The translations under genes were made by a program, and so were the position numbers. The notes below the pieces were generated by a model. The model saw only the letters and a list, made by a program, of their open reading frames with translations, did not search any database and was not told where the DNA came from. Shown here piece by piece: positions 10,658-55,611 of a DNA stretch of 64,000 nucleotides. Location: contig NC_009901.1 in assembly GCF_000018285.1 (NCBI RefSeq), positions 3,409,001 through 3,473,000 on the forward strand, written 5' to 3'. Each line of letters opens with the position of its first letter. Position 1 is the stretch's first letter. This DNA comes from Shewanella pealeana ATCC 700345. Lineage in GTDB: Bacteria > Pseudomonadota > Gammaproteobacteria > Enterobacterales > Shewanellaceae.

Positions 10658-10658
10658 T

Positions 10659-29222: not shown

Positions 29223-29236
29223 AATTAACTACTCTC

Positions 29237-31759: not shown

Positions 31760-31798
31760 AATCTTGTTTTCCTCAAACTTATTAATATCTGACTCGAC

Positions 31799-33832: not shown

Positions 33833-33840
33833 TCCTAGAC

Positions 33841-34815
33841 TTAACGGGCAAAGTTGCTGCCAGCAGGATGGTTAGAACCATGGATCTTGCTGTGGCAATT
33901 TAAACAACTCTTACCCGCACTGAATGCATCTAGACCTGCTTGGCTTGTCATGCGGCTTGCATGGCCATCATCTGCGTGACATTGCTGACACAACTGCGGC
34001 GTACGCGACTTAAGTAGGTTGTCGTTAACACTGCCATGGGGTGTATGACAGCTTGAGCAGTCTTCCATTACTGGCGCATGCTCCCATAGGAATGGTCCGC
34101 GCTTGTCGGCATGACACTCGGCGCAGGTCTCATTTAGGCTTGGCTTGATCAGTGCGCTTTCGGTCATAGAACCGTGTGGGTTGTGACAATCAATACAGGT
34201 CATCTGGTCCCACTTCATTGGGTGTGATGAGCGCTTATTCATGTCTGCCTTAGCGCGGGTATGACAAGAAGTACAGGTGTCGTTAACCGTTAAACGGTCA
34301 AGAGCAGGATCTTTTGCTGCATGAACATTGTGACAATCGCTACAAGCGACTTCTTCAAGATTGTGAGTACTGTTATGCCATGCCATCTGCTTAGGATCGT
34401 TATGACATCCTTGGCAAACACTGTTTTGGCTAGAAGCTGAAAGTTTGCTGTCAGGGCTAAAGCTAATCATTGGCTCTTTACCGCCACGATTATGCTTGCC
34501 TAATGGACCATGACAGGCTTCACATTGAATACCTGCCATAGGTGATTTACTGTTGCTCATGTCACCGTGAACGCCGTCAAAAATTTCCATGACTTTGGCA
34601 TTTTTCTTATGACACATAAGGCAAGAATCCGCCCCTTTCGGAGAGTATTTACCTTCGCTAAACTTCTCTGTTAATTTTTGTTCGAGTTGCGTTGAGTCAA
34701 GCTTATCCCATGGGGTTGCTTGAGCAGGCACAACACTGATAAGAATCGTGAGTAAACTGCTAGCCATTAATTTGGCCATAAAATTCACTGACTTTATGGT
34801 TTTGATTGTGGACAT
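33841..34815 (-). CDS. dmsE: Periplasmic decaheme c-type cytochrome DmsE (MtrA family)
   Basis: A 324-residue exported cytochrome with exactly ten CxxCH motifs (CLMCH, CEACH, CQGCH, CSDCH, CTSCH, CIDCH, CAECH, CSSCH, CQQCH, CLNCH). A signal peptide ends near VPAQA. Additional His residues between motifs serve as distal ligands. It receives electrons from CymA-type quinol oxidation and carries them through DmsF to the surface reductase. The first ATG gives a slightly long leader; an internal Met (MAKLM, residue 13) is a plausible alternative start. First gene of the operon. Confidence 0.95.
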
Positions 34816-38228: not shown

Positions 38229-38912
38229 ATGACTAATATCTTCGCGCCAAAAACCACCAGAACGCAAAAAGTGCTGGGGTATTTTTTTATGTTGCTACTG
38301 GCGCTCATGATGATTGCCGTATTTAGCAACACTTTGGTTAACGACGAGATTTATGAACCACTCAGTCTATTTGCCGCAGTGCTGTCTGTAGTTTTGCTTG
38401 TTGCTATGTTTTGGGGGTTAAAGCAGAAGAATTCATGGCTGAGAGTCAATCTTGATAATCAGCCTCGTAGCCCTGTAAAGGTGATCTTATCTGTCACTAT
38501 CGGCATTCCCATTCTATTGCACTTTTCATTAGCTAAAGGGTTACCTGTACTACTGCATATCCTGCTCGCCGATAAAGCCATCATGATTGCCACCATAGAC
38601 GATAAACGCTTTGGCTATTACAGCCGCACCTGCGATGGTGGTCTATACCTTGGAGGTTATAGTTTCTGGGGCAACGACTACATCTGCGGCATTAAAAAAG
38701 AGGATTGGGATAGTTATCAATCGGGAGACAAACTCGCGCTATATGGTGATAAATCAATACTGGGGTTCACCTACCAAAAATACACCCTGCTCACCGATGA
38801 ATTATTGCAACAGATGATTGCACAATCAGCCGCCTTAAAAGCAGAAGCTATCACAGGCAAAAAACCTATGAGCCTTGAACAGGCACGAAAATTTATTTCT
38901 CAAGGTCAATAA
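38229..38912 (+). CDS. Hypothetical membrane protein
   Basis: A 227-residue protein with three hydrophobic segments in the first ~120 residues and a soluble C-terminal part containing two Cys (about residues 139 and 153) in YYSRTCDGGLYLGGY and NDYICGIKKED. AAGGA lies 5 bases before the ATG. No family is recognised; the pairing with the preceding gene suggests a joint role in the membrane. Confidence 0.6.
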   Translation: MTNIFAPKTTRTQKVLGYFFMLLLALMMIAVFSNTLVNDEIYEPLSLFAAVLSVVLLVAMFWGLKQKNSWLRVNLDNQPRSPVKVILSVTIGIPILLHFSLAKGLPVLLHILLADKAIMIATIDDKRFGYYSRTCDGGLYLGGYSFWGNDYICGIKKEDWDSYQSGDKLALYGDKSILGFTYQKYTLLTDELLQQMIAQSAALKAEAITGKKPMSLEQARKFISQGQ

Positions 38913-39031
38913 AAACAATCAACCCAACATGAGTGGTTGGGCTGACTCTAAACACACTTAGAAGCAGCCTTAAAGCTCCTTTTATAAAGTCTAATAGCTC
39001 TTAAGATATAATTTCATTTGCGATTGTTTAT

Positions 39032-40135
39032 CTATCGGTTACTAAGAAACAGTTGCGCCAATTCCGGATCGGCCAATACCGCTTTAAGTGCGGAGTTATC
39101 CCCTCTCATCAAGTCTTGCATCATCCCAAGGCGCAGATCATTGGGCAGCAAGGGCATTTTTAAAAATGCTTGAATATTAACTAGCTGCTTCTTATTAGGT
39201 TTAAGCTTATTCACTTTAAGATAATGATATAAGCGTGTACACAGGGTCGCCAATATATCGATCCTGGGTATTGCTCCACCAGCGGTCTTCTCAATCTTAG
39301 GCGCGATAGTCTTAGCAAAATCATCGGCGTTCACTATGGCTTCTGGCGACACTAGCTTACTGAGGTTCTGCTCCACAAAGGCAATAAAGGCATTACAGGT
39401 AGTATCATCGAGGCAAGAGTGAGCCAAAATGTTTACTAGGGGCAACTCAGCCTTAAGATCGTTAATGTTAGCGATACTATTGAAAAACTGCACTAAAGAG
39501 CGCGGCGTGGTGCGCTCGCCATCGACTAACTCAGGGTAAGTCAGCACAAAATCGATGCCACGAGGGTCAATTCCCGCCCCTTCGGCCCACAAGGCCCAGA
39601 CCTTTGCATCAAATTCCATGGTGATATGCATCATACGAGTCAGCATGGCATCATCCATCGGCGTCACCGAATAGTCGCCGCCATCAGGGTTTGCCGTCAG
39701 TACGATATGCCAATCAAGCGGTAGCTTCCAGCTCACAAGCTCATGGTTTTGTAGTAGCTGCATGATGCCGCATAAAATTCGCTCATCGGCGCGGTTAACA
39801 TCATCGATAAGCAAGATCCCGGGGCCGGGCTCAGTCGGTACCCAGTGGGGCGGCGCAAAACGAGTGACATAATACCCCTCTTCATCTTGCGTAATCTTTG
39901 GCATCCCCAGCAGATCGCCCATCTCTTCAAACTGCGCCGGTGCAATGGCTCGCCACTGCATGCCTCGATCTTTGGCTATCTGCTCTACAAGCTGGGTTTT
40001 GCCAATGCCATGACGGCCCCAGATGCAAACAGGGGTAATATGCTGGGTATCATTGCTTAGTAGGTGTTCGATAAAGGGGCGCACTTCTTGTGCTTGGCAG
40101 CTTAGGCCGTAGTACTGATATTGAGCTGTATTCAT
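39032..40135 (-). CDS. MoxR-type AAA+ ATPase
   Basis: A 367-residue AAA+ ATPase. Walker A GRHGIGKT (40-47), Walker B GILLIDDVNRAD (about 106-117), sensor 1 LTANPDGG and a conserved Arg in DDAMLTRMMH are all present. Such ATPases act as chaperone-like remodellers paired with VWA proteins. The gene follows, 8 bases downstream, a VWA/metallopeptidase gene, which is the usual partner, and the pair is divergent from two LRR-BRCT genes. It probably uses ATP to control assembly of the VWA partner; the target is unknown. Confidence 0.88.
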   Translation of the reverse strand: MNTAQYQYYGLSCQAQEVRPFIEHLLSNDTQHITPVCIWGRHGIGKTQLVEQIAKDRGMQWRAIAPAQFEEMGDLLGMPKITQDEEGYYVTRFAPPHWVPTEPGPGILLIDDVNRADERILCGIMQLLQNHELVSWKLPLDWHIVLTANPDGGDYSVTPMDDAMLTRMMHITMEFDAKVWALWAEGAGIDPRGIDFVLTYPELVDGERTTPRSLVQFFNSIANINDLKAELPLVNILAHSCLDDTTCNAFIAFVEQNLSKLVSPEAIVNADDFAKTIAPKIEKTAGGAIPRIDILATLCTRLYHYLKVNKLKPNKKQLVNIQAFLKMPLLPNDLRLGMMQDLMRGDNSALKAVLADPELAQLFLSNR

Positions 40136-40143
40136 AAGTTAAC

Positions 40144-41442
40144 CTAATGCTTGCTTACCTTAGATGTAGATATGGACATGGGAATGACACGGCCAGATTG
40201 TTTTAGATGTTCAAAGGCCTGTTTGTCGCGATCACCTAAAAATGACTCACTGTGAATAAGCCAAAGTAACGGCTTACGGGGTAAGGTTGTCGGGGCTAGA
40301 GCCTCGCCATCGGTAAAATAAATGGTGCCATCAAATCTTTGCTGATTTGCCAATAAAATAGGCTCATCGAAACTGGTACCGCCACGGCCAGTTATCTTAT
40401 CAGGCGCTATCCCGCGGTACTGATATTGGCGTTTTAACTCGGTATCACACTCAGCAATGGTGATCTCGCAGCCTGCGCGCCAGATATGGTGCACCTCTTC
40501 AAAAAATAGCTGCAACTGCTCATCATCGACGCTTGCTGATGTATCGATGGCTATCAACAGCCTTTGGTGTTGCTGGATTTTAATCCCAGGCGTAGTGCCA
40601 TAACGTTTAGAGGGGCGTCTTAGGGTGTTTTTTACTGACGTGCGGCGGCTCGATGATGCGAACAATCTCAGTGCCCGCCGCCAATTAAGCACAGGGTTGC
40701 GAGCCTGGCGAACTTGCTCCAACATCGCCACTATCGCAGCCGGTAGATTACCGATGCCATTGCTCATCTCAGTGCGTTGGGCGGCAGTGTCTAACTTGCC
40801 TGCCAATTGTTGCTCAATCAATCCGTTCTGCGCCTGTGTTTGCTTGCCAAAATACCCCCACGATTGATGCCGACTCAGCTCTAGTTGATTCGATGACCCC
40901 CCTGAGTTATCCAATGGCAGAGCTGCTAAACTCTGATCCACTAAGCCTTGAGCCGCTAATCCTTGAGCCGCTATACCTTGTACCATTAGCGCCTGATAGT
41001 AATAATTCAGTTCACGCAGAGGCTCGAGCCTTGGCAGATTGTGCGCCTGACGATATTGATTGACGCCATCGAGGGTGATTGCGTTCGGTAACAGCTGCTG
41101 CGGAGACAGATATTGATTCACTACCAAGTCGGCCGCCAGATCAAATCTGCGTTTATCTACATAGCAATTACGCTGAAAAATATGCCCTAGCACTAAGTGA
41201 AGCGCCTCATGTTTAAGCGCCCCCACCTGCTGCTGTAGGCTTAAGGCCTGCCAACGTTGTGAATGGCAAACTAAAGCGACATCACTGGCGCCATGCAAGA
41301 CGATTTCTAAGACTGGCTCAAGAACTGACGCATTTGTGTCGCCTTTACTCATCAACTGCTTTTGCAAACTGGCAAGATAGTGGCCGTAAAAAGGTTCGCT
41401 AAGCATCAGGGTAACGCCTGCTTTAGACAGTGACGACTTCAA
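40144..41442 (-). CDS. Metallopeptidase-like and VWA domain protein (DUF2201 type)
   Basis: A 432-residue protein with two parts. The N-terminal part has HEALHLVLGH (His78, Glu79, His82), a zinc-protease-like HEXXH, followed by DLAADLVVNQYL; this is the DUF2201 N-terminal arrangement. The C-terminal VWA-like part has the metal-site motif DTSAS (DxSxS), with GRGGTSFDEPI supplying the second loop Thr. A Gln/Ala/Leu-rich linker (about 150-215) joins them. It is the predicted partner of the MoxR ATPase. No signal peptide, so it acts in the cytoplasm. Confidence 0.85.
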   Translation of the reverse strand: MKSSLSKAGVTLMLSEPFYGHYLASLQKQLMSKGDTNASVLEPVLEIVLHGASDVALVCHSQRWQALSLQQQVGALKHEALHLVLGHIFQRNCYVDKRRFDLAADLVVNQYLSPQQLLPNAITLDGVNQYRQAHNLPRLEPLRELNYYYQALMVQGIAAQGLAAQGLVDQSLAALPLDNSGGSSNQLELSRHQSWGYFGKQTQAQNGLIEQQLAGKLDTAAQRTEMSNGIGNLPAAIVAMLEQVRQARNPVLNWRRALRLFASSSRRTSVKNTLRRPSKRYGTTPGIKIQQHQRLLIAIDTSASVDDEQLQLFFEEVHHIWRAGCEITIAECDTELKRQYQYRGIAPDKITGRGGTSFDEPILLANQQRFDGTIYFTDGEALAPTTLPRKPLLWLIHSESFLGDRDKQAFEHLKQSGRVIPMSISTSKVSKH

Positions 41443-41530
41443 AGTTTTGCCTTATAACCATATTATTTTCAAGGGATTATCCATATAATTTCCCGCCCGT
41501 CAATTGGCGAGAGTCAGCATTAACTTTGTA

Positions 41531-41626
41531 TTAGCACTTGTATTAGAACTTGTATTAGCACTTGTATTAGTTCTTGTACTGGCACCTGTATTAGTTCTTG
41601 TACTGGCACTTGTATTAGTTCTTGTA
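41531..41626. repeat. 12-bp tandem repeat between divergent MoxR/VWA and LRR-BRCT genes
   Basis: Eight imperfect 12-bp units of the form TTAGNNCTTGTA (variants CTGGCACTTGTA and CTGGCACCTGTA) without gaps. It lies about 165 bases before the LRR-BRCT start and 90 bases before the VWA start. An open frame crosses it and would encode a Val/Leu-only stretch, but this is not supported by the paralogue downstream. Confidence 0.9.
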
Positions 41627-41791
41627 TTCGTTGTCGCAATAAGGAGCATCCATGGGCAGATCCCATCGCTTTCATTTTGTCACTGTAAACTCAGCAAAAC
41701 TTATCCTAATACCGACGACTTCGAAATTGATCCCGATGAAGATTTTCAACCCCGAGCTAAATATAAGAGTAATAAATATAAGAGTAATAAG

Positions 41792-43894
41792 ATGAGTTTC
41801 AACAGCACCCTGTACCTTAAAGATAACGACCTGCCGCTGGACAGCGTTATTAAGCCAAAGGTAACCAAGCTCCACTATCAACTGACTCGTAACCATCCCG
41901 AGTGGTCTGAATTGGCACGGGCGTTTCCTAATCTAATTGACTTAGAGATTTCTCATTCAGGCAATGTTCCCAGCCGAGTACCAGATGCTGCGTTATTTAG
42001 CAGCTTTGATAAACTGGAGTGCCTGCGTGGTTTGGGTCTGCAGCTGTTTCCTAAGAGCAGACACTCGGAACAAGCTGCAACATTAAGCCACTTAATCTTA
42101 ATCAACTCAGACGGTGAAACGCTGCCACCTTGGTTAAAATCGATAAAAAACATCAGTGGATTAACCCTCGTTAGGCCCAGCATGGCGTCCCTTGACGAGC
42201 TTAGTGAATTGCCTTTTCTGTCTAACATAAAGCTCGAGCTGCATCATTACGACCATCCCAATGACTTGCCTATTCCAAGCTTCGCGTGTTTGCTTAAGGC
42301 CCCAGCCCTACGCCAACTTGAGATAGAACTTAGCCCACAAGCTCAAGATACGGCCTATCTGGCCCCTCTAGCCTGCTTAGTCGATTTACCTCAGCACATA
42401 GAGCTAAAACTTAATGTTTATAGTCGTGTCGCTCGCAGTGATGAACTGAACAAGCTACTGGGAATTTTGCAAAATGCAGAACTGACTGGCGAACAACGAC
42501 GTCACTACTGGCTGCTATTGTTGGCAACGCCTAAACCCAAAAACTTACAATCTGAAAAACTGGATGCGCGCTTTCACCTGACCTTTATGGAAGCCAAGTT
42601 CAATCCAGTAAAAGTATTAGCACAAGCTTGGCTGCGCAGCCGTGCTCAAGTGGATGCCCAGCGCAGCCCATTGGGTCCTGATTGTGTGTTGTTCATCTGC
42701 GGAAAAAGCGGTTTTAAGGCGACAGAACTCAAAGAAAAAGCGGCCGAGCTTGGATTTAGCCTCAGTAAGACGCTCGATAGCAAGGTGACCCATATTGTTT
42801 TAGGCAGTAATCCAAAGCTGACCGCCGCCATCGATGTTGACCAGCACTTGATTATTGACGATACGGTGCTCAGCCAATGGTTCAGCGCCGATGCTCCTAA
42901 GTTTTTGCAACAGACAAGCGCCGCGCCGATGCTGGACAATGTGCTGGATATGCTGCGCTCACCGGATGAAACCAGTCACCTAGTCGCGATCACTATGCTT
43001 GAGCAAGGCGGCATTACATCTGAGATGCAGTTGCCGCTATTTTTAATTCTTAAAACCACCGATAACAAGGCTCTGCGTAAGCAAATTCAGACGTTACTTG
43101 CGGGTCTCGGCGACAATCTGTTCCAACTGGCGGTGCAAGATAGGGTGACATTTGATGGCAAGATGCGCGGATTGAATAAGCATGGTGACCCAATCGGTGA
43201 AGGCGCTGTCTACAAAAAACTCAAAGGCCTGAACAAGCGCTGGGGCAAAGCCCTATGTGACGAATTTTCATTGCTGTATTTCAACCGCTTCGGCGAAGGA
43301 TTATTGTGGCTTTTAAACCAAAAAGAAGAGCTAGCCCTCCGTCAACAAGCAATTCAAGCTCTGGTTGAGGGAGAGCGCCTTAACTGGCACAAAGGCTGCG
43401 GCTTTGAACGTATGTTGACACTGGGCGATGACGATCGTCGAGTTAACTGTCATCTATATCCAGACATCTATCTACGTAGTGATGAGCTGCACAATATCAA
43501 AGCCCCATTGCCTGTTGAACTACCCAGTAAAACGCGCATTACAGAGCTGGATTTGCATAACTGCTTACTCGGTGAGTTACCTGCCAATATCATGCACTAT
43601 GTAGACGTCACTGTGCTCAATTTGCACTTCAACCATCTAAGTTCGCTGCCAGCAACATTAGCCACTCTGAGTAACATTGAAGACTTGGATCTCTCCTATA
43701 ACCATTTCGATGAGTTTCCGGCCGTGCTGTTTAAGCTAACGAATCTGAAACGGCTCGATCTGCGCCGCGCTCGCCAACCCACTGGGCGTATATTTAACCA
43801 CCACTATGACACAAGCCAAGGTTATCAGCCCATTAGTGCACCAAAAGCTTTTCGCGATGCCTTGCCTGACTGTGAAATCCTTGAAGACCTTTAA
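41792..43894 (+). CDS. LRR-BRCT-LRR protein, first paralogue
   Basis: About 700 residues. The N-terminal arm (about 25-215) has leucine-rich repeat-like units, a BRCT domain follows at about 298-385 (VLFICGKSGF, ELGFSLSKTLDSKVTHIVLGS, DDTVLSQWF), then a helical region of unknown type (about 390-580), then a canonical LRR block (ITELDLHNCLLGELP, VLNLHFNHLSSLPATL, DLDLSYNHFDEFP, about 582-665). I use ATG 41792 because ATAAGAG lies upstream, as before the paralogue, and because the alignment with it begins here; an ATG at 41504 would add a repeat-encoded leader. It is divergent from the MoxR-VWA pair and probably its client or sensor. Confidence 0.8.
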   Translation: MSFNSTLYLKDNDLPLDSVIKPKVTKLHYQLTRNHPEWSELARAFPNLIDLEISHSGNVPSRVPDAALFSSFDKLECLRGLGLQLFPKSRHSEQAATLSHLILINSDGETLPPWLKSIKNISGLTLVRPSMASLDELSELPFLSNIKLELHHYDHPNDLPIPSFACLLKAPALRQLEIELSPQAQDTAYLAPLACLVDLPQHIELKLNVYSRVARSDELNKLLGILQNAELTGEQRRHYWLLLLATPKPKNLQSEKLDARFHLTFMEAKFNPVKVLAQAWLRSRAQVDAQRSPLGPDCVLFICGKSGFKATELKEKAAELGFSLSKTLDSKVTHIVLGSNPKLTAAIDVDQHLIIDDTVLSQWFSADAPKFLQQTSAAPMLDNVLDMLRSPDETSHLVAITMLEQGGITSEMQLPLFLILKTTDNKALRKQIQTLLAGLGDNLFQLAVQDRVTFDGKMRGLNKHGDPIGEGAVYKKLKGLNKRWGKALCDEFSLLYFNRFGEGLLWLLNQKEELALRQQAIQALVEGERLNWHKGCGFERMLTLGDDDRRVNCHLYPDIYLRSDELHNIKAPLPVELPSKTRITELDLHNCLLGELPANIMHYVDVTVLNLHFNHLSSLPATLATLSNIEDLDLSYNHFDEFPAVLFKLTNLKRLDLRRARQPTGRIFNHHYDTSQGYQPISAPKAFRDALPDCEILEDL

Positions 43895-43937
43895 TAGCGA
43901 TAGCGCAGCAATAGAATTTGAATATAAGAGCAATAAC

Positions 43938-46424
43938 ATGAACAAGCAAAAAACGTTTCGCTTAGAAGATAAACACCTGCCACTGGATAATAGCGTTCAT
44001 GCTGAAGTGACCGATCTTTTTTATGATTTAAATTACAGCCATCCGGATTGGGCGGAATTAGCGCACAAATTCCCGAATTTAACGAGGCTCGACCTCAATT
44101 ATTATGGCCGTAAAGAACCCAATCGTATTCCTGATGCGCAGCTATTTATCAACTTCCCAAAATTAAAATGCTTAGACGCTGTAGCGCAGCCGCTGGTGTT
44201 AACGCCAGAGCAAGCGCCTTTTCTGCAACATTTAGAAGAGGTGAATAATGTATTGATCACCGATGCCATCAGCTTTGCAGTGTTAACTGGTTTGCCTGCC
44301 ATCAAATCTTTAGACGTGCGCTTGGGTGGCAGCGCCGTAGATCTGACAGCTGCGGGAAAGTCCTTACAAAAAATAAGAATGGTTCTGATGGTGGCTGACT
44401 GTGTACAGCTGGATATGAGCCAAAGCGATAAGCTAACGCACTTTAGCCTTATAATGTCTGACTGCTGCGCTGCTACCCGATTATCACTACCTGCTTCCGT
44501 CATTGTGTTGGATATAGTAGAAACCGCTGAGCTAAGCCTAGCGTCTGAGCTGCCAAATCTCGTCCATGCCAAGTTGAGCCCTTGCCTGCCTGAAGTGCTA
44601 AAGCATAGTAAGCAGCTTGAGTACCTTGAAGTGTGCCACTTTAGCGCAAGCTCACTACCTCAGTGGCTACAAGAGCTGCCCAAGCTGAGTCATCTGTCGC
44701 TGTTAAATCCAGAACTCACTGAACTGGGTGATATGGGCGGACTGAGCGCGTTAACAGAACTCAGTTTAAAACTACATCACTACTACTTCGATCAAGCGTA
44801 CACATTTAACGCGCCTAAGCTAACCGGACTGCTAAACGCACCAGCGCTAAATAAATTAAATGTGACCCTAAGTAAGCAAACGAAAGAGATCAGTAGCCTA
44901 AAAGCGCTTATTAGCTTACCTAAACGTATCGAGCTAAAACTTGATGTTTATAATCATATCGCTCGCAGTGATGAACTGAACAAGCTACAGGGAATTTTGC
45001 AAAATGCAGAGCTGACTGCTGAGCAAAGAGGGCACTACTGGCTCCTGCTGCTTGGCATAGATAAACCTAAAAAACTCCCAGCTGAAAAACTTGATGCCCG
45101 CTTCCATCTGACCTTTATGGAGGCTAAATACAGTCCGCTAAAATCCTTGGCGCAAGCTTGGCTGCGCAGCCGTGCTCAAGTGGATGCCGAGCGCAGCCCA
45201 TTGGGTACTGATAGTGTGTTGTTCATCTGCGGAAAAAGCGGTTTTAAGGCGGCAGAACTCAAAGAAAAAGCGGCCGAGCTTGGCTTTAGCCTCAGTAAGA
45301 AGCTCGATAGCAAGGTGACCCATATTCTACTAGGCAGTAATCCAAAGCAGACCGCCGCCATCGATGTTGACCAGCACTTGATTATTGACGATACGGTGCT
45401 CAGCCAATGGTTCAGCGCCGATGCTCCTAAGTTTTTGCAACAGACAAGCGCCGTGCCGATGCTGGACAATGTGCTGGATATGCTGCGCTCACCGGATGAA
45501 ACTAGTCATCTAGTCGCGGTCACTATGCTTGAGCAAGGCGGCATTACATCCGAGATGCAGTTGCCGCTATTTTTAATTCTTAAAACCACCGATAACAAGG
45601 CACTGCGTAAGCAAATTCAGACGTTACTTGCAGGTCTCGGCGACAATCTGTTCCAACTGGCGGTGCAAGATAGGGTGACATTTGATGGCAAGATGCGCGG
45701 ATTGAATAAGCATGGTGACCCAATCGGTGAAGGCGCTGTCTACAAAAAACTCAAAGGCCTGAACAAGCGCTGGGGCAAAGCCCTATGTGACGAATTTTCA
45801 TTACTGTATTTCAACCACTTCGGCGAGGGTTTATTGTGGCTGTTGAGTCAAAAAGAAGAGCTAGCTCTCCGACAACAAGCCATTGGTGCGCTAGTTGAAG
45901 GCGAACGCCTTAACTGGCACAAAGGCTGCGGCTTTGAGCGCATGTTGACACTAGGCGATGATGATCGTCGAGTTAAATGTCATCTATATCCAAACATCTA
46001 TCTACGTAGTGATGTGCTGCACAATATCAAAGCGCCATTGCCAATAAAACTACCCAGTAAAACACGCATTACAGAGCTGGATTTGCATAACTGCTTACTC
46101 GGTGAGTTACCCACGAGTTTTGTGCATTATGTCGATGTCACTAAGCTCAACTTACACTTCAATCATTTAAGTTCGCTGCCAGCAACATTAGCCACTCTGA
46201 GTAAAATAGAAGACTTAGATCTCTCCTATAACCATTTCGATGAATTTCCGGCCGTGCTGTTCAAGCTAACGAATCTGAAACGGCTCGATCTGCGCCGCGC
46301 TCGCCAACCCGCTAGAGGTGTATTTAACTGCCACTATGATGAAAACGAAGATTACCTGCCCATTCGCGCACCACAAGCATTTCGCGATGCCTTTCCAGAG
46401 TGCGAGATTTTAGAAGATGAATAA
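43938..46424 (+). CDS. LRR-BRCT-LRR protein, second paralogue
   Basis: About 828 residues, 43 bases after the first paralogue and with the same ATAAGAG-type ribosome region. The N-terminal arm (about 30-330) carries more leucine-rich units than the first and differs from it. From about residue 332 on (ELKLDVYNH onwards) the two are nearly identical, including the BRCT domain (about 427-515) and the C-terminal LRR block (about 710-790). Long stretches are nearly identical at DNA level, for example the block around 45405-45800 against 42870-43265. This fits a constant effector or scaffold half with a variable recognition arm. Confidence 0.8.
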   Translation: MNKQKTFRLEDKHLPLDNSVHAEVTDLFYDLNYSHPDWAELAHKFPNLTRLDLNYYGRKEPNRIPDAQLFINFPKLKCLDAVAQPLVLTPEQAPFLQHLEEVNNVLITDAISFAVLTGLPAIKSLDVRLGGSAVDLTAAGKSLQKIRMVLMVADCVQLDMSQSDKLTHFSLIMSDCCAATRLSLPASVIVLDIVETAELSLASELPNLVHAKLSPCLPEVLKHSKQLEYLEVCHFSASSLPQWLQELPKLSHLSLLNPELTELGDMGGLSALTELSLKLHHYYFDQAYTFNAPKLTGLLNAPALNKLNVTLSKQTKEISSLKALISLPKRIELKLDVYNHIARSDELNKLQGILQNAELTAEQRGHYWLLLLGIDKPKKLPAEKLDARFHLTFMEAKYSPLKSLAQAWLRSRAQVDAERSPLGTDSVLFICGKSGFKAAELKEKAAELGFSLSKKLDSKVTHILLGSNPKQTAAIDVDQHLIIDDTVLSQWFSADAPKFLQQTSAVPMLDNVLDMLRSPDETSHLVAVTMLEQGGITSEMQLPLFLILKTTDNKALRKQIQTLLAGLGDNLFQLAVQDRVTFDGKMRGLNKHGDPIGEGAVYKKLKGLNKRWGKALCDEFSLLYFNHFGEGLLWLLSQKEELALRQQAIGALVEGERLNWHKGCGFERMLTLGDDDRRVKCHLYPNIYLRSDVLHNIKAPLPIKLPSKTRITELDLHNCLLGELPTSFVHYVDVTKLNLHFNHLSSLPATLATLSKIEDLDLSYNHFDEFPAVLFKLTNLKRLDLRRARQPARGVFNCHYDENEDYLPIRAPQAFRDAFPECEILEDE

Positions 46425-46909: not shown

Positions 46910-47776
46910 ATGATTACAAAAAGACTCACGACAACCCCGTTCCGATCGATAACATTAACTATTGCTGCGGGTGTACTGTCTGGTTGTAGCCTGTTACCAA
47001 GCAGCATTGAAAGACAAACTGAAATAGAAATCCTGATGCTCGACTTAGGCAGTTGTCAATTCGATAACAATGAGCGCAAAACTATGTATCAAGCTGCTAG
47101 TGCAGGTAATCGAATCCCCTTCCCTTTGCTGATTTGTGAAGGGCAACGTAGTGAGTCTTTTAATCAGCGCTGGTTGCAAAGCCGCCGCAGCGTTGATTAC
47201 AACATTTTGGGTAGCTATTTTGAGGATGCAGGCTCTGGCGCCGCGCTAATCGAGATCAGCATGCCGGACTGGGGAGCAGCATGCACCGACTTAGGCTATG
47301 ACGATACAACCTGTGATCACTTGGTTTACGGCATTAACGCGCCACACATAGAAAAAGTGTCGGATGCTCAAGTACAGAGCTTGCTGGATAAGCAAGACAC
47401 ACTGGCATTAGTCACCAACATCCCAATTATCAAAGACACGATATTAATGCCGCTCAAACACAATGCCACTGGCCAGTTAATCGCAAACTGGATTGAAGAT
47501 AGTGGTGCATCAAGAGCCAATAAAGCGCTAGCGGATAAGCTTGGCGAAGCGGTTAATAATAACGGTAAGCCATTACCGGTCAGCAGTTATAACCTGCAAT
47601 ATGATCTGTTAGAGCAAGAGGATCTACCCGCTCAGTATCAAGGCGTGTTCTATTATGCCACACCGCAGTATATCGATTATAGCGGCAGGCCTTCGGCCGA
47701 ATACTCAATCCCGCTTCGTAATGGCGTACAAGTTCGCGGCTATAAAACCGCTGTTTATCGCGCCCTCCCTAACTAA
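46910..47776 (+). CDS. Hypothetical lipoprotein
   Basis: A 288-residue protein with an N-terminal signal ending in the lipobox LSGC (about Cys26). The body is rich in Asp and Asn with several Cys (CQF, CEGQ, CTDLGYDDTTC), suggesting periplasmic disulfides. No family is recognised. It lies between a YceK-like lipoprotein and a pair of related exported proteins, in the same direction with short gaps. Confidence 0.6.
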   Translation: MITKRLTTTPFRSITLTIAAGVLSGCSLLPSSIERQTEIEILMLDLGSCQFDNNERKTMYQAASAGNRIPFPLLICEGQRSESFNQRWLQSRRSVDYNILGSYFEDAGSGAALIEISMPDWGAACTDLGYDDTTCDHLVYGINAPHIEKVSDAQVQSLLDKQDTLALVTNIPIIKDTILMPLKHNATGQLIANWIEDSGASRANKALADKLGEAVNNNGKPLPVSSYNLQYDLLEQEDLPAQYQGVFYYATPQYIDYSGRPSAEYSIPLRNGVQVRGYKTAVYRALPN

Positions 47777-47805: not shown

Positions 47806-48774
47806 ATGAAACTAATGATTAAACCATTGATAATATTTACAGCATTACAGTCAGTCATTGCTTTCAATGCCTATAGCTATGCTGAGGCTAGCCTTGAGCA
47901 AGAGAGCTATCAACAGAATAATCAACAACAAGATTGCAGCTTAAATCAGTTAAGCAGCGTACTCGATTTTGATGCCGCACTGGTAACCAGAAAGTATGGT
48001 CTTAGCTTAGCCACAGACAATACGGTTTGTAGAGTATTACCCCATAACAAAGAGCAAGCATTACTGTCTTATTTTCAATATTATCAATCTGACGAAGATG
48101 GCTTTTCAAGCAATCTATGGCGAGTACTCTTGGTCAATCGCTACAGTAACAAAGTTGAAGCTAGCTATACTGGCGTGATCCAAGAAAGCAGCGCAATTAA
48201 AAGTCACTCCGATAGTATTAGTATTGATAGCGCGAGTTATCGTCTCAATGACAATACGAGAGCACTTGGATTGGTATTAGATCTTGCTAATTACGACACA
48301 TCGCCGCAAGAGCATGAGTACCGCGCCTTCAAAACCAATCGTTTTCTTAGCCTATTTGTTCAAGAGGGAGACAAGCTACGCCCAGTGCTTAAACACCTGC
48401 CGCTGGATTACGAGCTAGAAGGCACTGATACGGCAGGCAGTAATGGTGGGGGTTACCTGCATTATGGCGTACAGGGTAGAGTTGAAGTGTTATCCAGCAC
48501 CAGCCATGGCTACCATGATTTAAAATTGGTGACTCAAGGGCAACAATACAGTACAGACGGTGAATATGATCAAACCGAAGAGATAAGCTTTAGCACTGAG
48601 CTTAACTATAGCGGCAGCCGCTACCCAGTGATCACCGAACAATTACCCGCAGCTGAATTTTGGCAAATAAACCAAACTGGGGTGAACTTTTTAACAGAGA
48701 GCAACAATAGCCATGAAGCCGCTTCGCAAACAGATCCAAACAGCAGTCAAGCGGAGAGCCAATATGCCAACTAA
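47806..48774 (+). CDS. Exported hypothetical protein, paralogue of the next gene
   Basis: A 322-residue protein with a signal peptide ending near SYAEA (residue 28). It shares with the following protein the blocks IDSASYRLNDNTRALGLVLD, NRFLSLFVQEGDKLRPVLKHLPLDYE and a C-terminal region ending in tandem-like strand segments (SGSRYPVITEQ). These repeat-like similarities suggest the two genes arose by duplication. Two Cys near the N-terminus (DCSL and NTVCRVL) are candidates for a disulfide. Function unknown. Confidence 0.6.
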   Translation: MKLMIKPLIIFTALQSVIAFNAYSYAEASLEQESYQQNNQQQDCSLNQLSSVLDFDAALVTRKYGLSLATDNTVCRVLPHNKEQALLSYFQYYQSDEDGFSSNLWRVLLVNRYSNKVEASYTGVIQESSAIKSHSDSISIDSASYRLNDNTRALGLVLDLANYDTSPQEHEYRAFKTNRFLSLFVQEGDKLRPVLKHLPLDYELEGTDTAGSNGGGYLHYGVQGRVEVLSSTSHGYHDLKLVTQGQQYSTDGEYDQTEEISFSTELNYSGSRYPVITEQLPAAEFWQINQTGVNFLTESNNSHEAASQTDPNSSQAESQYAN

Positions 48775-49705
48775 CAACGGTTCTATTTACCCATTAGGCT
48801 TCAGATTACCCGCTCTATTTAGTAAAGCTGTTTTGACTTGCTGTATTTTATTCTCGCCCGCAAGCTACGCCAAGCAAGTGTGCAGCACTGATGCTATTGA
48901 AGCGATGGAAAATGACAGCGGTTATTTTCAAGGATTCACCGCCGCGGTATGTAAGCAATTGCCCCACCAAGAACAATTCATCATGGGGGCATATCTACAA
49001 TGGACAGGCGGCAGCTTTGCAGGTGAAAGACATTACACCCTGCGCACCGTTATTATGGATACACAGGCTCATGAGGTTATCGCTCGTCATACAGGAAGTT
49101 TAACTGAGCGCTCAGGATTAACCATTACTCCGACCGCTCAAGCAGACAATGCAGATTCTGACACTAAAAACCAAAGCAAGCCTGTACAAGCGCCGCTTTG
49201 GATTGATACTGCCAACTACAAACTTAACAGCGATACACGCGCACTTGGTGTGCGTATGCTAGCCCAGCAGCACCCTGACGGGACGACGCATTATGAGTCA
49301 GACTACTTAAGTTTATTTGTCCACCAAGGACGTTTTCTTATTCCTGTAGTTGAGAACCTACCGCTTTATTATTGGAAAGCCTGGCAAGACGAAGATAGTG
49401 CCAACAATAATGTAAACAATAGCAATAAAGCTAGCGATGAGACCAGTATGGCACAGCGCTACATCGTGGAAACAGGTAAAGGCGCGTTGCATATTGAGCC
49501 GAAACAAAACAAAGGCTTTGCCGACTTAAAGCTACTAACCAAAACCAAGCTGTCTGGTGCCCTGCCCAAACTCACCGATAGCACTCAGAGCCGCACCACG
49601 ATTACCCGTTTAAGGTTTAATGGTGAGCGTTATTACATTCTAGATTCATCATTTGGCGATCACCGAGATTGGCAGAGTACTGAGCGTTGGTGGAAGCGTT
49701 GGTAG
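48764..49705 (+). CDS. Exported hypothetical protein, paralogue of the preceding gene
   Basis: About 313 residues. The ATG at 48764 has GGAG upstream and overlaps the end of the previous gene by 11 bases, so they are coupled; the longer frame from 48713 is less likely. A signal peptide ends near SYAKQ. Shared blocks with the previous protein: IDTANYKLNSDTRALGVRML, DYLSLFVHQGRFLIPVVENLPLYY and FNGERYYIL near the end. The linker around residues 125-145 is Asn/Gln/Asp rich. Function unknown; the pair may act together in the envelope. Confidence 0.6.
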   Translation: MPTNNGSIYPLGFRLPALFSKAVLTCCILFSPASYAKQVCSTDAIEAMENDSGYFQGFTAAVCKQLPHQEQFIMGAYLQWTGGSFAGERHYTLRTVIMDTQAHEVIARHTGSLTERSGLTITPTAQADNADSDTKNQSKPVQAPLWIDTANYKLNSDTRALGVRMLAQQHPDGTTHYESDYLSLFVHQGRFLIPVVENLPLYYWKAWQDEDSANNNVNNSNKASDETSMAQRYIVETGKGALHIEPKQNKGFADLKLLTKTKLSGALPKLTDSTQSRTTITRLRFNGERYYILDSSFGDHRDWQSTERWWKRW

Positions 49706-49861: not shown

Positions 49862-50042
49862 CGAAGAAAGCCAATAGCTCAAGCCTTTTAAGAGCTAGAC
49901 CTTTACCTTGGTGTTTTGTGAAATCCTAGCGCTTGGTGGCGATATTAGCGTTGGTGAGACTGAGTACAAAAATCTCTATTCATAGATATCAGAATAGGGA
50001 TAAATGGGGGATGCGGCCGCTCCCAAATTAGAAGGAAATAAA
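49862..50042 (+). repeat. Leader repeat copy A, upstream of the first Imm11-like gene
   Basis: Non-coding block matching 53641-53837 with many small differences, including CTTTTAAGA, ACCTTGGTGTTTT, TAGCGCTTGGTG, GATATTAGCGTT, CATAGATATCAGAATAGG and GGCCGCTCCC then the ribosome site. It ends at the ATG of the Imm11-like gene in both copies, so it probably carries the promoter. Confidence 0.8.
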
Positions 50043-50594
50043 ATGCAGTTTTTTGTGGTGTTGCCAAAGTTTGAAGATGAAGAAGGGCTATATCAAGAGA
50101 GTGATGAAAAAACGAATTTAATGAATATTACCGACAGGCCATTACTTTTCTATAAGAAACCCTTATCTGAAGTTCAGGATGTTTATACTCAAAGACGTTT
50201 TTCTGATGTTTTAAAAGCAGGGTCTTTTATCAGTGTCAGTGATAAAGTTCAACGCATCTTCTTTGAACTCGGGTTTCAGGGAGTACAATTCATCCCTTTA
50301 TTAGTGAATAACAATGGAATTCATGATGGCTATGCATTTATGCATAAAATTGCCACCTATGACCTTCTTGACCCTATTGCTTCTGGCGCTAAACGTTTTT
50401 ATGACGGCAATTTTGCTCGTGTTCTTCATTTATACTTAGATAAAAGTAAATTTGAATCCGTCAATATAATTCACGATGTGTTTATGTGTAGTACCTACTC
50501 AAGTAAGTTTATTTGTAATGAACGAGTAAAAAAAGCACTCGAAGATGCAAATATAACCGGAATTGAATTCGAACCAGTGGAGTTTTCATCATGA
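50043..50594 (+). CDS. Imm11 (DUF1629)-like immunity protein, first copy
   Basis: A 183-residue cytosolic protein. SVSDKVQRIFFELGFQGVQF, FMHKIATYDLLDP, YLDKSKF and the C-terminal NERVKKALEDANITGIEFEPV match the Imm11/DUF1629 pattern seen in polymorphic-toxin immunity proteins. The ATG at 50043 has AAGGA upstream; the frame from 50004 would include the non-coding leader. A second copy is at 53838 with a matching leader. No toxin gene is adjacent, so it may be an orphan immunity gene, which is an inference from family membership. Confidence 0.72.
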   Translation: MQFFVVLPKFEDEEGLYQESDEKTNLMNITDRPLLFYKKPLSEVQDVYTQRRFSDVLKAGSFISVSDKVQRIFFELGFQGVQFIPLLVNNNGIHDGYAFMHKIATYDLLDPIASGAKRFYDGNFARVLHLYLDKSKFESVNIIHDVFMCSTYSSKFICNERVKKALEDANITGIEFEPVEFSS

Positions 50595-51065: not shown

Positions 51066-52265
51066 TTACTCGTTGGACTTTGTTATTTGAACCTTCCTAT
51101 CGAATGCTTTTTCATCTAATTGAGTAACCGATAACGGAATAGTTACGTTGGTAATTGCGTTTTTCTCAAATGCACCAGAAGCAATCGAAGTCACTGAATT
51201 AGGGATGGTTACTTTGGTAAGTGCGTTTTTTTCAAATGCACTTGAACCAATCGAAGCCACTGAGTTAGGGATGGTTAGCGTTGTTAAGGAATTCTTAAAA
51301 AACACAAACTCACCAATGGTAGAGATAGAGTTTGGTATGCTCACCGCTGTCAAGGCATTGGATGAAAAAGCACTATCACCTAATGAAGTAAGAGTCTTTG
51401 GCAAGTCAATAGATGTAATTAAATTAACTGCAAATGCACTTCTTCCAATTGAGGTGACCGAATCAGGGATTGTCACACTGTTTAATTTATTGCTATAAAA
51501 TACCTCATTACCAATCGATGTGATGGAGTTTGGTATTATCACACTTGTCAACGAATTGGCGTAGAAGGCCCCATTACCGAGAAAAGTAACTGAACTTGGG
51601 ATATCGACCTTTTTTATTGCATTATTAGTAAACGCACTACCACCTATGGAAGTGACAGAGTCAGAAAAAGTGAGTTCGGTTAACTTATTATGTGCAAACG
51701 ATCCTCCACCAATTGAAACGACGCCATTTGGAATGTGCAATTTTATTAAATCATTATTCCTGAATGCCCAATTTTCAATATCAATTACCGAGTCAGGGAT
51801 CCTAACGTTTGTTAACGCATTTTCTGAAAACGTCCACTTTCTGATGGTAGTTATGGAGTTAGAGATGGTCACATTCTCCAATCCATTTCTTGAAAAGGCT
51901 CCAGAACCTATATACATGACAGAGTCAGGAATGATTAGACTCACGATCTTATTTTGCGTAAACGCATTCATCCCAATAGAACCAATAGTTATAGGGAGCG
52001 ACACGCTTGTTAAACCTGACTGGCTAAATGAGTTCGCCCCGATAGCGATAACCGGTATGCCGCCAAGACTTTTAGGAATTGCAATATTGGTATAGTGAGC
52101 AGTATAGCGCTCAATAGTGCCAGTTTCGCTATTAAAGATACCATCCTCTAAGGTGAAGGTATGAACTAAATCTAGTGATGTCGAGCTCTGTTCAATTTCG
52201 TGAGCAAGTACGCAACTAACAAACAAGTAATATAAAATTGTAAAGCCAAGGATAAGTTTCGACAT
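51066..52265 (-). CDS. BspA-type leucine-rich repeat (LRR_5) exported protein
   Basis: A 399-residue protein with a signal peptide (ILYYLFVSCVLA, about residues 8-21) and then about 13 repeats of 23 residues of the form SVTSIGxxAFxxNxLTxVxIPN, the BspA/LRR_5 class, which build surface adhesion or recognition solenoids. The repeats are diverged but regular. It lies in the opposite direction to its neighbours between the two Imm11-like units. A role in surface contact is an inference from family. Confidence 0.85.
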   Translation of the reverse strand: MSKLILGFTILYYLFVSCVLAHEIEQSSTSLDLVHTFTLEDGIFNSETGTIERYTAHYTNIAIPKSLGGIPVIAIGANSFSQSGLTSVSLPITIGSIGMNAFTQNKIVSLIIPDSVMYIGSGAFSRNGLENVTISNSITTIRKWTFSENALTNVRIPDSVIDIENWAFRNNDLIKLHIPNGVVSIGGGSFAHNKLTELTFSDSVTSIGGSAFTNNAIKKVDIPSSVTFLGNGAFYANSLTSVIIPNSITSIGNEVFYSNKLNSVTIPDSVTSIGRSAFAVNLITSIDLPKTLTSLGDSAFSSNALTAVSIPNSISTIGEFVFFKNSLTTLTIPNSVASIGSSAFEKNALTKVTIPNSVTSIASGAFEKNAITNVTIPLSVTQLDEKAFDRKVQITKSNE

Positions 52266-52430: not shown

Positions 52431-52461
52431 CGTCAAAGACTTGTGTTGTAAGAGAGTGGAT

Positions 52462-53604
52462 ATGAGAGTTTTAATTTTATTCATAGTTTTCTTGTTGGGC
52501 GGGTGTGTAAGCTCTGATAGGAGTTCTGAGAGGAGCCCAGACTTTGCCATTGAGTTGCATCGCAAAGCGGCAGAGCAAGGCGTTGCAGACGCGCAATATA
52601 CACTCGAGACCATATATGATTATGGAATTAACGTACCAGTGAACAGACAAGAAGCCATTAAATGGTATCGCAAAGCGGCAGAACAAGGCGTTGCAGACGC
52701 GCAATATACACTCGGGACCATATATGATTATGGAATGGGCATACCGGAGAACAGACAAGAAGCCATTAAATGGTATCGCAAAGCGGCAGAACAAGGCGTT
52801 GCAGACGCGCAATATACACTCGGGACCATATATGATTATGGGATTGACGTATCAGAGAACAGACAAGAAGCACTGGATTGGTATTACCTGGCCGCAGAGC
52901 AAAATCATGTCGATGCACTTTATGCTATCGGCATGATCTTTCATTCAACGAAGGAAGATTATCCAGAAGCAATCTATTGGATTAAAAAAGCCGCAGATAA
53001 GGGCCTTGATGAAGCACAGTATGATTTGGCTAGAATGCTTTATTTTGGGGTCGGAACTGAGGAAAACAAACAGCAAGCGTTTATTTGGTATCTGAAAGCC
53101 GCTGAGCAAGGCCATGTTGCAGCCCAATTTTATGTTGGTTCTGCTTATGATTTTGCGCAAGGAGTTGCAGAAAACAAAACAAACGCCTTTGTTTGGTATC
53201 AGAAGGCGGCTAATGAGGGGTATGCAAAAGCCCAGTTTCACTTAGGCTCAATGTACGAACTAGGGGAAGGTACAACAGTTAATAAAGCCAAAGCCATAAG
53301 GTGCTATTTGAAAGCGGCTGAACAAGGGCTACCCGATGCGCAGCATAACCTTGGGGTGATGTTTGAACTGGGCGATGGAGTGGTCAAAAACATGCCTGAG
53401 GCAATAACATGGTACACGGCCGCGGCCAAGCAAGGAAATGCTGAATCACAGTATGTATTGGGCACCATATATGAATCGGATAAGAGTGAACCACAGAATC
53501 TACATATTGCAGACATGTGGTATCAAGGAGCGGCAGCGCTGGGACATCAGAAAGCGCTAGAAGCGTTAAAGCAAAATCGCACGGAACCCCGCACAATGCA
53601 TTAA
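52462..53604 (+). CDS. Sel1-repeat lipoprotein
   Basis: About 380 residues. A lipoprotein signal ends LLGGC; Sel1 (TPR-like) units of 36 residues then run to the C-terminus, for example AIKWYRKAAEQGVADAQYTL. The first three are nearly identical at DNA level, and the later ones (about 105-375) are diverged. Sel1 solenoids mediate protein-protein contacts. ATG 52462 is preferred over the TTG at 52441 because it begins the signal sequence. Repeat B lies just upstream. Confidence 0.9.
   Translation: MRVLILFIVFLLGGCVSSDRSSERSPDFAIELHRKAAEQGVADAQYTLETIYDYGINVPVNRQEAIKWYRKAAEQGVADAQYTLGTIYDYGMGIPENRQEAIKWYRKAAEQGVADAQYTLGTIYDYGIDVSENRQEALDWYYLAAEQNHVDALYAIGMIFHSTKEDYPEAIYWIKKAADKGLDEAQYDLARMLYFGVGTEENKQQAFIWYLKAAEQGHVAAQFYVGSAYDFAQGVAENKTNAFVWYQKAANEGYAKAQFHLGSMYELGEGTTVNKAKAIRCYLKAAEQGLPDAQHNLGVMFELGDGVVKNMPEAITWYTAAAKQGNAESQYVLGTIYESDKSEPQNLHIADMWYQGAAALGHQKALEALKQNRTEPRTMH
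52561..52884 (+). repeat. Three 108-bp near-identical tandem repeats within the Sel1 gene
   Basis: Units start at 52561, 52669 and 52777 (each begins CGCAAAGCGG). They differ at few bases, for example CTCGAGACC against CTCGGGACC and AACGTACCAGTG against GGCATACCGGAG. Each encodes one 36-residue Sel1 unit, so repeat number can change without breaking the frame. Confidence 0.92.
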
Positions 53605-55599: not shown

Positions 55600-55611
55600 A
55601 ACAACCTCCAA

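What the first reader, a model, noticed from the sequence alone, without database searches (positions are those of the whole stretch)
39032..46424. MoxR ATPase + metallopeptidase/VWA protein + two LRR-BRCT-LRR paralogues: candidate undescribed system
Seen: a MoxR-type AAA+ (39032-40135) and a HEXXH-VWA protein (40144-41442) are divergent from two tandem large genes with LRR arms at both ends and a BRCT domain in the middle. Known: MoxR-VWA pairs act as chaperone-like modules, and some belong to NTP-dependent conflict systems with variable recognition proteins. Inference: here the ATPase/VWA pair could switch a DNA- or protein-sensing LRR-BRCT scaffold. BRCT plus LRR in bacteria is unusual.
Basis: partly seen in the sequence, partly recalled or inferred. 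Interest (0 to 1): 0.8.

Follow-up and report, generated by a model that had tools for sequence, protein, structure and literature searches.

The report
Mobile MoxR-VWA module with LRR-BRCT receptors
Four neighbouring genes (an ATP-driven motor, its metal-binding partner and two large repeat-built binding proteins) form a rare unit that has travelled between marine bacteria as one block, and its two binding proteins keep different binding arms on nearly the same body, as expected of interchangeable sensors on one shared machine whose job is still unknown.

Summary
Window 39032-46424 holds MoxR (AAA_5), a DUF2201 metallopeptidase-VWA protein and two tandem LRR-helical-BRCT-HEAT-LRR proteins. 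In 14 of 15 genomes found with an LRR-BRCT gene (8 of 325 Vibrionaceae, 6 of 14 Ferrimonas, this Shewanella), MoxR-VWA lies divergently beside one; the exception has a lone LRR-BRCT gene, and two of the 14 loci are decayed. In Vibrionaceae the same 8 genomes carry VWA and LRR-BRCT. The four genes moved as one ~8.5-kb block between Vibrio and Ferrimonas (90.5% DNA identity, unrelated flanks); two related Shewanella show the empty site. New: the two paralogues here share a 91% identical helical-BRCT-HEAT core but 38% identical N-terminal LRR arms, and arm and core trees conflict significantly. Best reading: interchangeable LRR receptors on one MoxR/VWA-peptidase motor, like a MoxR-VWA ternary system with an undescribed third component. 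Whether it serves conflict or protein assembly is open: no PADLOC match, effector domain or positive selection was seen. The MoxR + metallopeptidase-VWA pair is known from jumbo phages and occurs in other bacteria without this LRR-BRCT family. New variant of a known kind.

The parts
38917..38947 (-). intrinsic-terminator-like hairpin (12 pairs) at the 3' end of the VWA-MoxR transcript
   Evidence: consensus match only (7 such sites found in the region, 8.1 expected); the transferred block in L019/L022 also begins with a hairpin downstream of MoxR (by reading)
39032..40135 (-). MoxR-type AAA+ ATPase (AAA_5), Walker A/B and sensor-1 motifs intact; closest PDB sequences are midasin
40144..41442 (-). 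DUF2201 protein: metallopeptidase-like domain (HEALH) plus VWA-like domain with complete MIDAS (DxSxS, T, D)
41443..41791 (.). divergent intergenic region between the two transcripts; holds a 12/24-bp tandem repeat array at 41526-41628
41792..43894 (+). LRR-BRCT paralogue A (700 aa): short N-terminal LRR arm 41792-42418, core (helical, BRCT, HEAT-like) from 42419, C-terminal LRR
43938..46424 (+). LRR-BRCT paralogue B (828 aa from the homologue-supported start)
43938..44948 (+). B: N-terminal LRR arm (residues 1-337), 38% identical to that of A over 206 aligned residues
44949..45203 (+). B: helical segment 1 (residues 338-422), 80% identical to A
45204..45437 (+). B: BRCT domain (residues 423-500), 92% identical to A
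45438..46052 (+). B: HEAT-like helical segment (residues 501-705), 95% identical to A
46053..46424 (+). B: C-terminal LRR cap (residues 706-828), 83% identical to A
46910..47776 (+). lipoprotein-like protein without Pfam family; its homologue lies directly downstream of the last LRR-BRCT gene in 5 of 5 Ferrimonas loci that hold MoxR-VWA, but is absent from 8 of 8 Vibrionaceae genomes with the module; optional associate
47806..48774 (+). secreted-looking protein, paralogue of the next; follows the lipoprotein in 3 of the 5 Ferrimonas loci (L018, L022, L191); optional associate
48713..49705 (+). secreted-looking protein, second of the pair; optional associate

Best explanation
The four genes form one horizontally mobile functional module. 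The LRR-BRCT proteins are interchangeable recognition subunits. The N-terminal LRR arm binds a target that differs between paralogues. The shared helical-BRCT-HEAT core docks onto a single MoxR hexamer/metallopeptidase-VWA motor, the role that VMAP, iSTAND or TERNS3 play as third components of MoxR-VWA ternary systems. ATP hydrolysis, coupled through the MIDAS of the VWA protein (as in midasin or NorQ-NorD; mechanism recalled), would remodel the receptor-target complex, and the HEXXH domain would usually cut the target or the receptor. Patchy presence, block transfer and decay make a biological-conflict role somewhat more likely than a housekeeping one. SHOWN here: gene content, linkage, co-occurrence, block transfer, domain-wise concerted evolution in one lineage group, intact motifs. 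INFERRED: docking of the core on MoxR-VWA, target binding by the arms, remodelling, cleavage, and the conflict role.
For: The same 8 Vibrionaceae genomes carry VWA (8 of 329) and LRR-BRCT (8 of 325). Divergent adjacency in 14 of 15 genomes, in at least seven chromosomal settings by reading of the flanks. Block transfer: V. intestinalis L019 4412-12865 equals F. aestuarii L022 4357-12821 at 90.5% over 8,480 bp with unrelated flanks, limits at the four genes, while PNPase of V. intestinalis is 74% identical to that of F. aestuarii. Empty sites in Shewanella G762 and G016. Core homogenised, arms not: A/B core segments 80-95%, arms 38%; P0002/P0008 core 95-100%, arms 41%. AU tests reject same-genome pairing for arms (p 8e-28; 5e-61) and arm-type grouping for cores (p 3e-109; 7e-6). 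One motor beside several receptors: three tandem LRR genes in L022; P. aquae has four LRR-BRCT genes and one VWA match; P. nomapromontoriensis has four LRR-BRCT hits and one VWA hit on contigs of the same length, 118,797. Purifying selection in every domain compared (dN/dS 0.01-0.20).
Against: No physical contact between core and motor was tested. Core homogenisation could also reflect self-association, a shared DNA ligand or unselected gene conversion. The A/B cores in Vibrio, Ferrimonas, P. aquae and V. stylophorae are only 21-64% identical per segment, so homogenisation is seen in one lineage group only. The motor is not tied to these receptors elsewhere: ~40% identical VWA relatives in Bacteroidota and a 52% one in Microbulbifer taiwanensis have no LRR-BRCT counterpart. 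For the conflict role: no effector domain, no PADLOC match, no defence neighbours noticed, arms under purifying selection with conserved orthologues. HEXXH is lost in V. stylophorae (QQALH), although its MIDAS and MoxR motifs are kept, so cleavage is not obligatory.
Confidence: 0.55

Rival explanations
1. Dedicated assembly or repair chaperone: MoxR-VWA acts on a cellular complex (RavA-ViaA, NorQ-NorD or midasin style) and the LRR-BRCT proteins are adaptors or clients of a non-conflict process, for example DNA-end or envelope maintenance in a niche; the downstream lipoprotein and secreted proteins in Ferrimonas and Shewanella would belong to that process.
For: The characterised MoxR-VWA pairs in the abstracts listed (RavA-ViaA, NorQ-NorD, CbbQ-CbbO) act as chaperone-like or activase machines. 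Closest PDB sequence to the MoxR is midasin (summed over weak stretches, none passing alone). Arms are conserved and under purifying selection. Lipoprotein linkage in 5 of 5 Ferrimonas loci with MoxR-VWA. BRCT domains typically serve DNA-damage proteins (family knowledge).
Against: Very patchy: 1 of the 36 Shewanella (this genome) and 8 of 325 Vibrionaceae, with block transfer and two decayed copies, unlike housekeeping; the lipoprotein is absent from all 8 Vibrionaceae carriers.
Confidence: 0.3
2. Phage-derived virion-assembly machine that was domesticated: the MoxR + metallopeptidase-VWA pair is a phage morphogenesis chaperone captured by bacteria, and the LRR-BRCT proteins bind virion parts to block or misdirect assembly of incoming phages.
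For: Jumbo phages carry a MoxR + metallopeptidase-VWA pair proposed to act in virion assembly (PMC7824862, passages).
Against: The phage VWA proteins of those 80 loci are 29-33% identical, and 22 annotated phage records match mostly at 22-31%, less than the ~40% bacterial relatives, so direct capture from known phages is not indicated; no LRR-BRCT in the 80 loci, annotated phages or viral contigs.
Confidence: 0.1
3. No functional unit: mobile neighbours that are adjacent by chance or by shared transfer only.
For: The lipoprotein trio shows that some neighbours travel or persist independently; G1118 has an LRR-BRCT gene without MoxR-VWA within the 19 kb seen.
Against: Identical carrier sets in Vibrionaceae, the same divergent layout in at least seven settings, and transfer limits that coincide with the four genes.
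Confidence: 0.03

Closest known systems
MoxR-vWA ternary conflict systems (VMAP, iSTAND, iSTAND2, TERNS3)
   Same: MoxR AAA+ plus vWA pair with a variable third protein proposed to recognise invaders (PMC8195603, PMC7159879, PMC12839542, PMC10907252: passages seen)
   Different: Third component is LRR-helical-BRCT-HEAT-LRR, not VMAP/iSTAND/TERNS3. The VWA protein is the DUF2201 metallopeptidase-VWA type with no C-terminal effector. In the main text of PMC7159879 'BRCT', 'leucine' and 'COG3864' do not occur and a word beginning with 'LRR' occurs once, in a reference title.
MoxR + metallopeptidase-vWA pair of group 2.2 jumbo phages
   Same: Same pair of domain architectures; proposed virion-assembly chaperone with peptidolytic processing (PMC7824862, passages)
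   Different: No LRR-BRCT partner found in phages; the phage VWA proteins compared are ~22-33% identical to the window protein
RavA-ViaA, NorQ-NorD, CbbQ-CbbO
   Same: MoxR AAA+ working with a VWA partner on a larger substrate protein (start of abstracts)
   Different: Housekeeping or metabolic clients, no LRR-BRCT component, no DUF2201 domain (their domain make-up recalled, not tested)
Midasin (Rea1)
   Same: AAA ring plus MIDAS domain pulling factors off assemblies (mechanism recalled); best PDB sequence match of the MoxR protein, 1.2e-10 for the whole chain, best stretch residues 30-80, no single stretch passing the limit alone
   Different: Single giant eukaryotic chain; ribosome assembly (recalled)

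Membership tests
MoxR-vWA ternary conflict system | MoxR-type AAA+ with intact ATPase motifs | tested here: met
   (AAA_5 over cut-off); motifs intact in 10 of 10 MoxR proteins checked
MoxR-vWA ternary conflict system | Linked vWA protein with MIDAS | tested here: met
   MIDAS residues in 27 of 27 rows
MoxR-vWA ternary conflict system | C-terminal effector domain on the vWA protein or on an adjacent vWA-L gene | tested here: not met
   no Pfam effector domain after the VWA domain or in the nine neighbours scanned; the only catalytic-looking part is the N-terminal HEXXH domain
MoxR-vWA ternary conflict system | Third component VMAP, iSTAND, iSTAND2 or TERNS3 | tested here: not met
   Pfam gives only LRR and BRCT for the third component, NCBIfam only LRR-type matches, PADLOC nothing; no confident NTPase-like match of the models in the listed PDB rows. 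No VMAP or iSTAND profile of the authors was at hand.
MoxR-vWA ternary conflict system | Role against invaders | not testable with these tools
   No PADLOC match; phage challenge needed
DUF2201 metallopeptidase-VWA family | DUF2201_N and DUF2201 above curated cut-offs | tested here: met
   50.7 and 48.6 bits against cut-offs 23.2 and 26.4
DUF2201 metallopeptidase-VWA family | HEXXH zinc motif | tested here: met
   HEALH in the window; 25 of 27 rows keep HEXXH, and 9 of 10 VWA genes checked beside LRR-BRCT genes; peptidase activity itself untested
Known anti-phage defence system | Match to a PADLOC model | tested here: not met
   0 families for 4 proteins at E<=1
BRCT domain | Pfam BRCT above cut-off and BRCT fold | tested here: met
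   34 and 26.5 bits against 21.3; the top core fold hits are mainly BRCT chains, but only at E 0.086 or worse (probability up to 1.00)
BRCT domain | Phosphopeptide or DNA-end binding | not testable with these tools
   The recalled T/S-G phosphate motif reads C-G in 10 of 11 rows of A1 and N-G in one, but S-G in the Vibrio and F. aestuarii A paralogues; not decisive

The most novel reading that the evidence does not exclude
An undescribed bacterial receptor-motor immune module, mechanistically parallel to LRR immune receptors: several LRR receptors of fixed but different specificity plug through a common helical-BRCT-HEAT body into one MoxR/peptidase-VWA engine, and gene conversion keeps the body identical so that every receptor still fits the engine.
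Probability: 0.35. Interest if true: 0.85.

Novelty: new variant of a known kind. Interest (0 to 1): 0.64.

Why it matters
It adds a new kind of third component (LRR-BRCT-HEAT-LRR) to MoxR-VWA machines and offers a natural experiment in modularity: arm and core of the same gene follow different histories. A compact four-gene block that moves between families is testable in a laboratory strain. It may also help to explain what the common but functionally unassigned phage MoxR + metallopeptidase-VWA pair acts on. The phage VWA family is labelled 'HNH endonuclease' in PHROGs, which the domain evidence contradicts.

Tried and rejected
Chance neighbourhood: rejected by identical carrier sets and block transfer.

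Conserved housekeeping cluster: rejected. LRR-BRCT is in 1 of the 36 Shewanella (this genome; the other matches there are LRR-level, 43 bits at most), 8 of 325 Vibrionaceae and 6 of 14 Ferrimonas. VWA: 8 of 394 in an order-wide draw match at E<=0.001, of which only this genome and one Ferrimonas closely, the other six at up to 42 bits; 1 of 398 in a phylum-wide draw at E<=1e-30, this genome.

Plasmid or phage carriage of the whole module: LRR-BRCT had no match in plasmids, annotated phages or viral contigs; VWA matched 4 plasmid records at 24-32% identity.

Arms race by positive selection: not seen; N-terminal arm dN/dS 0.11-0.18 (only Vibrio and F. aestuarii orthologues compared).

The lipoprotein trio as core part: rejected as obligatory. 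The lipoprotein is absent from 8 of 8 Vibrionaceae carriers and present in 4 of 59 other Shewanella without the module in the 17-19 kb around it; kept as an optional associate.

Hidden enzyme in the helical core: no hit at E<=0.001; the listed rows are mainly BRCT chains plus weak, low-probability others.

What led nowhere: the PDB fold search of the whole protein lists only LRR proteins in its 50 rows. The neighbourhood of the ~40% identical Bacteroidota MoxR-VWA relatives could not be reached with the tools left, so their partner is unknown; the same holds for Microbulbifer. Of the 18 closest VWA clusters (P0023-P0040), 8 share a longest-contig length with an LRR-BRCT hit; this crude test is inconclusive for the other 10, of which at least P0031 (F. 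balearica) does have the genes side by side (L023). The first protein search was flooded by LRR proteins and missed members, restricted to the core, gave 32 members at E<=2e-86 and nothing weaker down to 1e-3, still a lower bound.
Full report
WHAT IS THERE. The window lies in a single-contig 5.17-Mb genome; its close named relative P0006 is from Shewanella sp. 125m-7, so the genus is taken as Shewanella. Reading leftward, 41442-40144 encodes a DUF2201 metallopeptidase-VWA protein and 40135-39032 a MoxR-type AAA+ ATPase; reading rightward, 41792-43894 (A) and 43938-46424 (B) encode two LRR-BRCT-LRR paralogues. Homologues fix the starts of A and B at MSFNSTLYL and MNKQKTFRL. An AlphaFold2 model of B (pLDDT 86.5, pTM 0.60, so relative domain placement is uncertain) is consistent with an N-terminal LRR solenoid, a helical segment, BRCT, a HEAT-like helical segment and a short C-terminal LRR cap. 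The core alone (pLDDT 83.5, pTM 0.70) finds mainly BRCT chains in the PDB, none at E<=0.001, and nothing convincing for the helical parts.

HOW RARE AND HOW LINKED. A core-restricted search of about 5.8 billion proteins gives 32 relatives, all at E<=2e-86, with nothing between that and the 1e-3 limit; every named one is Vibrio, Photobacterium, Ferrimonas or Shewanella. The search works by shared words, so 32 is a lower bound. In Vibrionaceae, 8 of 329 genomes have the VWA protein and the same 8 of 325 have LRR-BRCT. In Ferrimonas, 6 of 14 genomes have LRR-BRCT. The 35 other Shewanella have at most LRR-level matches. In an order-wide draw of 394 genomes, 8 match the VWA protein, none of them another genome of the same genus. 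Of the 15 genomes found with LRR-BRCT (8 Vibrionaceae, 6 Ferrimonas, this one), 14 have MoxR-VWA divergently beside at least one LRR-BRCT gene. The exception, G1118, holds one LRR-BRCT gene with no MoxR or VWA match in 19 kb, next to what reads like a truncated copy of a gene flanking the F. kyonanensis locus (by eye). Two of the 14 are decayed: L050 has the VWA frame and one LRR frame broken, L051 has only fragments of VWA and LRR-BRCT; MoxR is still open in both.

THE MOTOR ELSEWHERE. The VWA protein has 708 relatives at E<=1e-3, of which 120 were listed, many of them Bacteroidota at ~40% identity and a 52% one in Microbulbifer taiwanensis. None of these taxa appears in the LRR-BRCT list. 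So LRR-BRCT depends on MoxR-VWA in the sample, but not the other way round.

MOBILITY. V. intestinalis L019 4412-12865 and F. aestuarii L022 4357-12821 are 90.5% identical over 8,480 bp; the match begins at a hairpin behind MoxR and ends just behind LRR-B, and the flanks do not match. PNPase of V. intestinalis is only 74% identical to that of F. aestuarii. The settings differ: between mtn and pnp in four Vibrio genomes, beside dusB in P. aquae and V. stylophorae, another site shared by L048 and L051, three different sites in F. kyonanensis, F. aestuarii and F. balearica, and the window (gene names by reading). In Shewanella G762 and G016 the homologue of 38229-38912 is followed two bases later by the homologue of the lipoprotein 46910-47776, where the window has the module and a DUF1375 gene. 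This comparison alone does not tell insertion from deletion.

CONCERTED EVOLUTION. Window A and B are 38% identical in the N-terminal arm but 80, 92, 95 and 83% in helical segment, BRCT, HEAT and C-terminal LRR. A stretch of about 200 codons has 96-100% DNA identity, while in the arm only 31-60% of third bases agree even where the amino acid is the same. The pair P0002/P0008, probably one contig by its length, shows the same: 41% against 95-100%. In trees of 13 sequences the arms group by type across genomes and the cores by genome; AU tests reject the same-genome pairs for arms (p 8e-28; 5e-61) and the arm-type grouping for cores (p 3e-109; 7e-6). The groups were named after seeing the 30-row trees, which the test formally does not allow for. 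The paralogue pairs of Vibrio, Ferrimonas, P. aquae and V. stylophorae do not show homogenisation (21-64% per core segment), so it is lineage-specific.

SELECTION AND MOTIFS. dN/dS is 0.11-0.18 in N-terminal arms and 0.01-0.20 in the other domains among Vibrio and F. aestuarii orthologues; MoxR and VWA 0.04-0.15. MoxR motifs are intact in 10 of 10 proteins checked. MIDAS is intact in 27 of 27 VWA rows and HEXXH in 25 of 27; V. stylophorae lacks it.

CONTEXT. No PADLOC family matches the four proteins; of ten other window proteins tested, one has a partial repeat-type match. At the other loci only the nearest genes were read by eye, and they look like ordinary cellular genes. A lipoprotein-like gene lies directly behind the last LRR-BRCT gene in 5 of 5 Ferrimonas loci with MoxR-VWA, with two secreted-looking paralogues behind it in three of the five, and near it in the window, where a DUF1375 gene intervenes. 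It is missing from all 8 Vibrionaceae carriers, and present in 4 of 59 other Shewanella whose surrounding 17-19 kb lack the module.

PHAGE LINK. Among 50,697 annotated phage records only 22 match. Jumbo-phage pairs were described and proposed to serve virion assembly (PMC7824862, passages). PHROG 1314, which the VWA protein matches at 3e-46, is labelled HNH endonuclease; the Pfam result argues that this label is wrong for this architecture.

INTERPRETATION. The pattern (one motor, one to three linked and sometimes further unlinked LRR proteins, in one lineage a body kept alike while arms are kept apart, block transfer, occasional decay) fits receptors sharing an engine. It works like a MoxR-VWA ternary system but is not a member as defined: the third-component and effector features were tested and not met. 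A conflict role is favoured only mildly; the absence of defence neighbours, effectors and positive selection counts against it, and an assembly-chaperone role remains a serious rival.

NOVELTY. Literature searches: DUF2201 (4 papers, none on this by title and start of abstract); at least three of MoxR, vWA, leucine-rich repeat and BRCT (3 papers, passages of two seen, none on this); at least three of BRCT domain, leucine-rich repeat, bacteria and HEAT repeat (94 papers, 10 listed); at least three of MoxR, LRR, ternary and conflict (671 papers, 8 listed). No description was seen in these listings and passages. The library is open-access only, so subscription papers are not covered.

On re-reading the calls I widened the range of non-homogenised cores (21-64%), added the S-G motif of some A paralogues, the VWA relatives without LRR-BRCT, the annotated-phage count and the limits of the literature listings; no probability needed changing.

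Noticed in passing
window 41526-41628: 12/24-bp tandem repeat array (TTGTATTAGCAC, 8.6 copies) between the divergent VWA and LRR-A genes; of 8 other intergenic regions tested 7 have none and L048 a short 10-bp one; could vary promoter spacing.
   Followed up: partly
window 40920-40980: 15-bp tandem repeats inside the VWA gene, in the stretch coding the variable linker before the VWA domain.
   Followed up: no
window 50004-50594 and 53838-54395: Two similar genes (by reading), the first with an Imm11 immunity-protein match, flanking repeat-protein genes (51066-52265, 52441-53604).
   Followed up: no
window 54622-55611; L081 14146-15144: Transposase-like gene (named by reading), in two frames in the window and one in the related genome G762, where it sits at the truncated end of the homologue of 48713-49705.
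   Followed up: no
L017 7188-12484, L086 about 9425-12200, L047: P. aquae carries three LRR-BRCT genes away from MoxR-VWA besides the one beside it: receptors apparently in trans to one motor.
   Followed up: partly
PHROG 1314; phage hits H5, H11, H16, H19, H20, H22: Phage VWA relatives are annotated 'HNH endonuclease' although the window protein of that family is DUF2201 metallopeptidase-VWA: probably a propagated mislabel.
   Followed up: partly
window about 27753-34815: Cluster that reads like an outer-membrane DMSO-reductase set (multihaem cytochrome, beta-barrel, molybdopterin and iron-sulphur subunits, named by eye) upstream of the module; at least partly collinear in four relatives whose loci lack the module.
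   Followed up: no
L022 12798-15590: A third, strongly diverged LRR-BRCT paralogue lies behind the recently transferred pair in F. aestuarii, directly followed by the lipoprotein; the recent block may have landed on or replaced part of an older locus.
   Followed up: no
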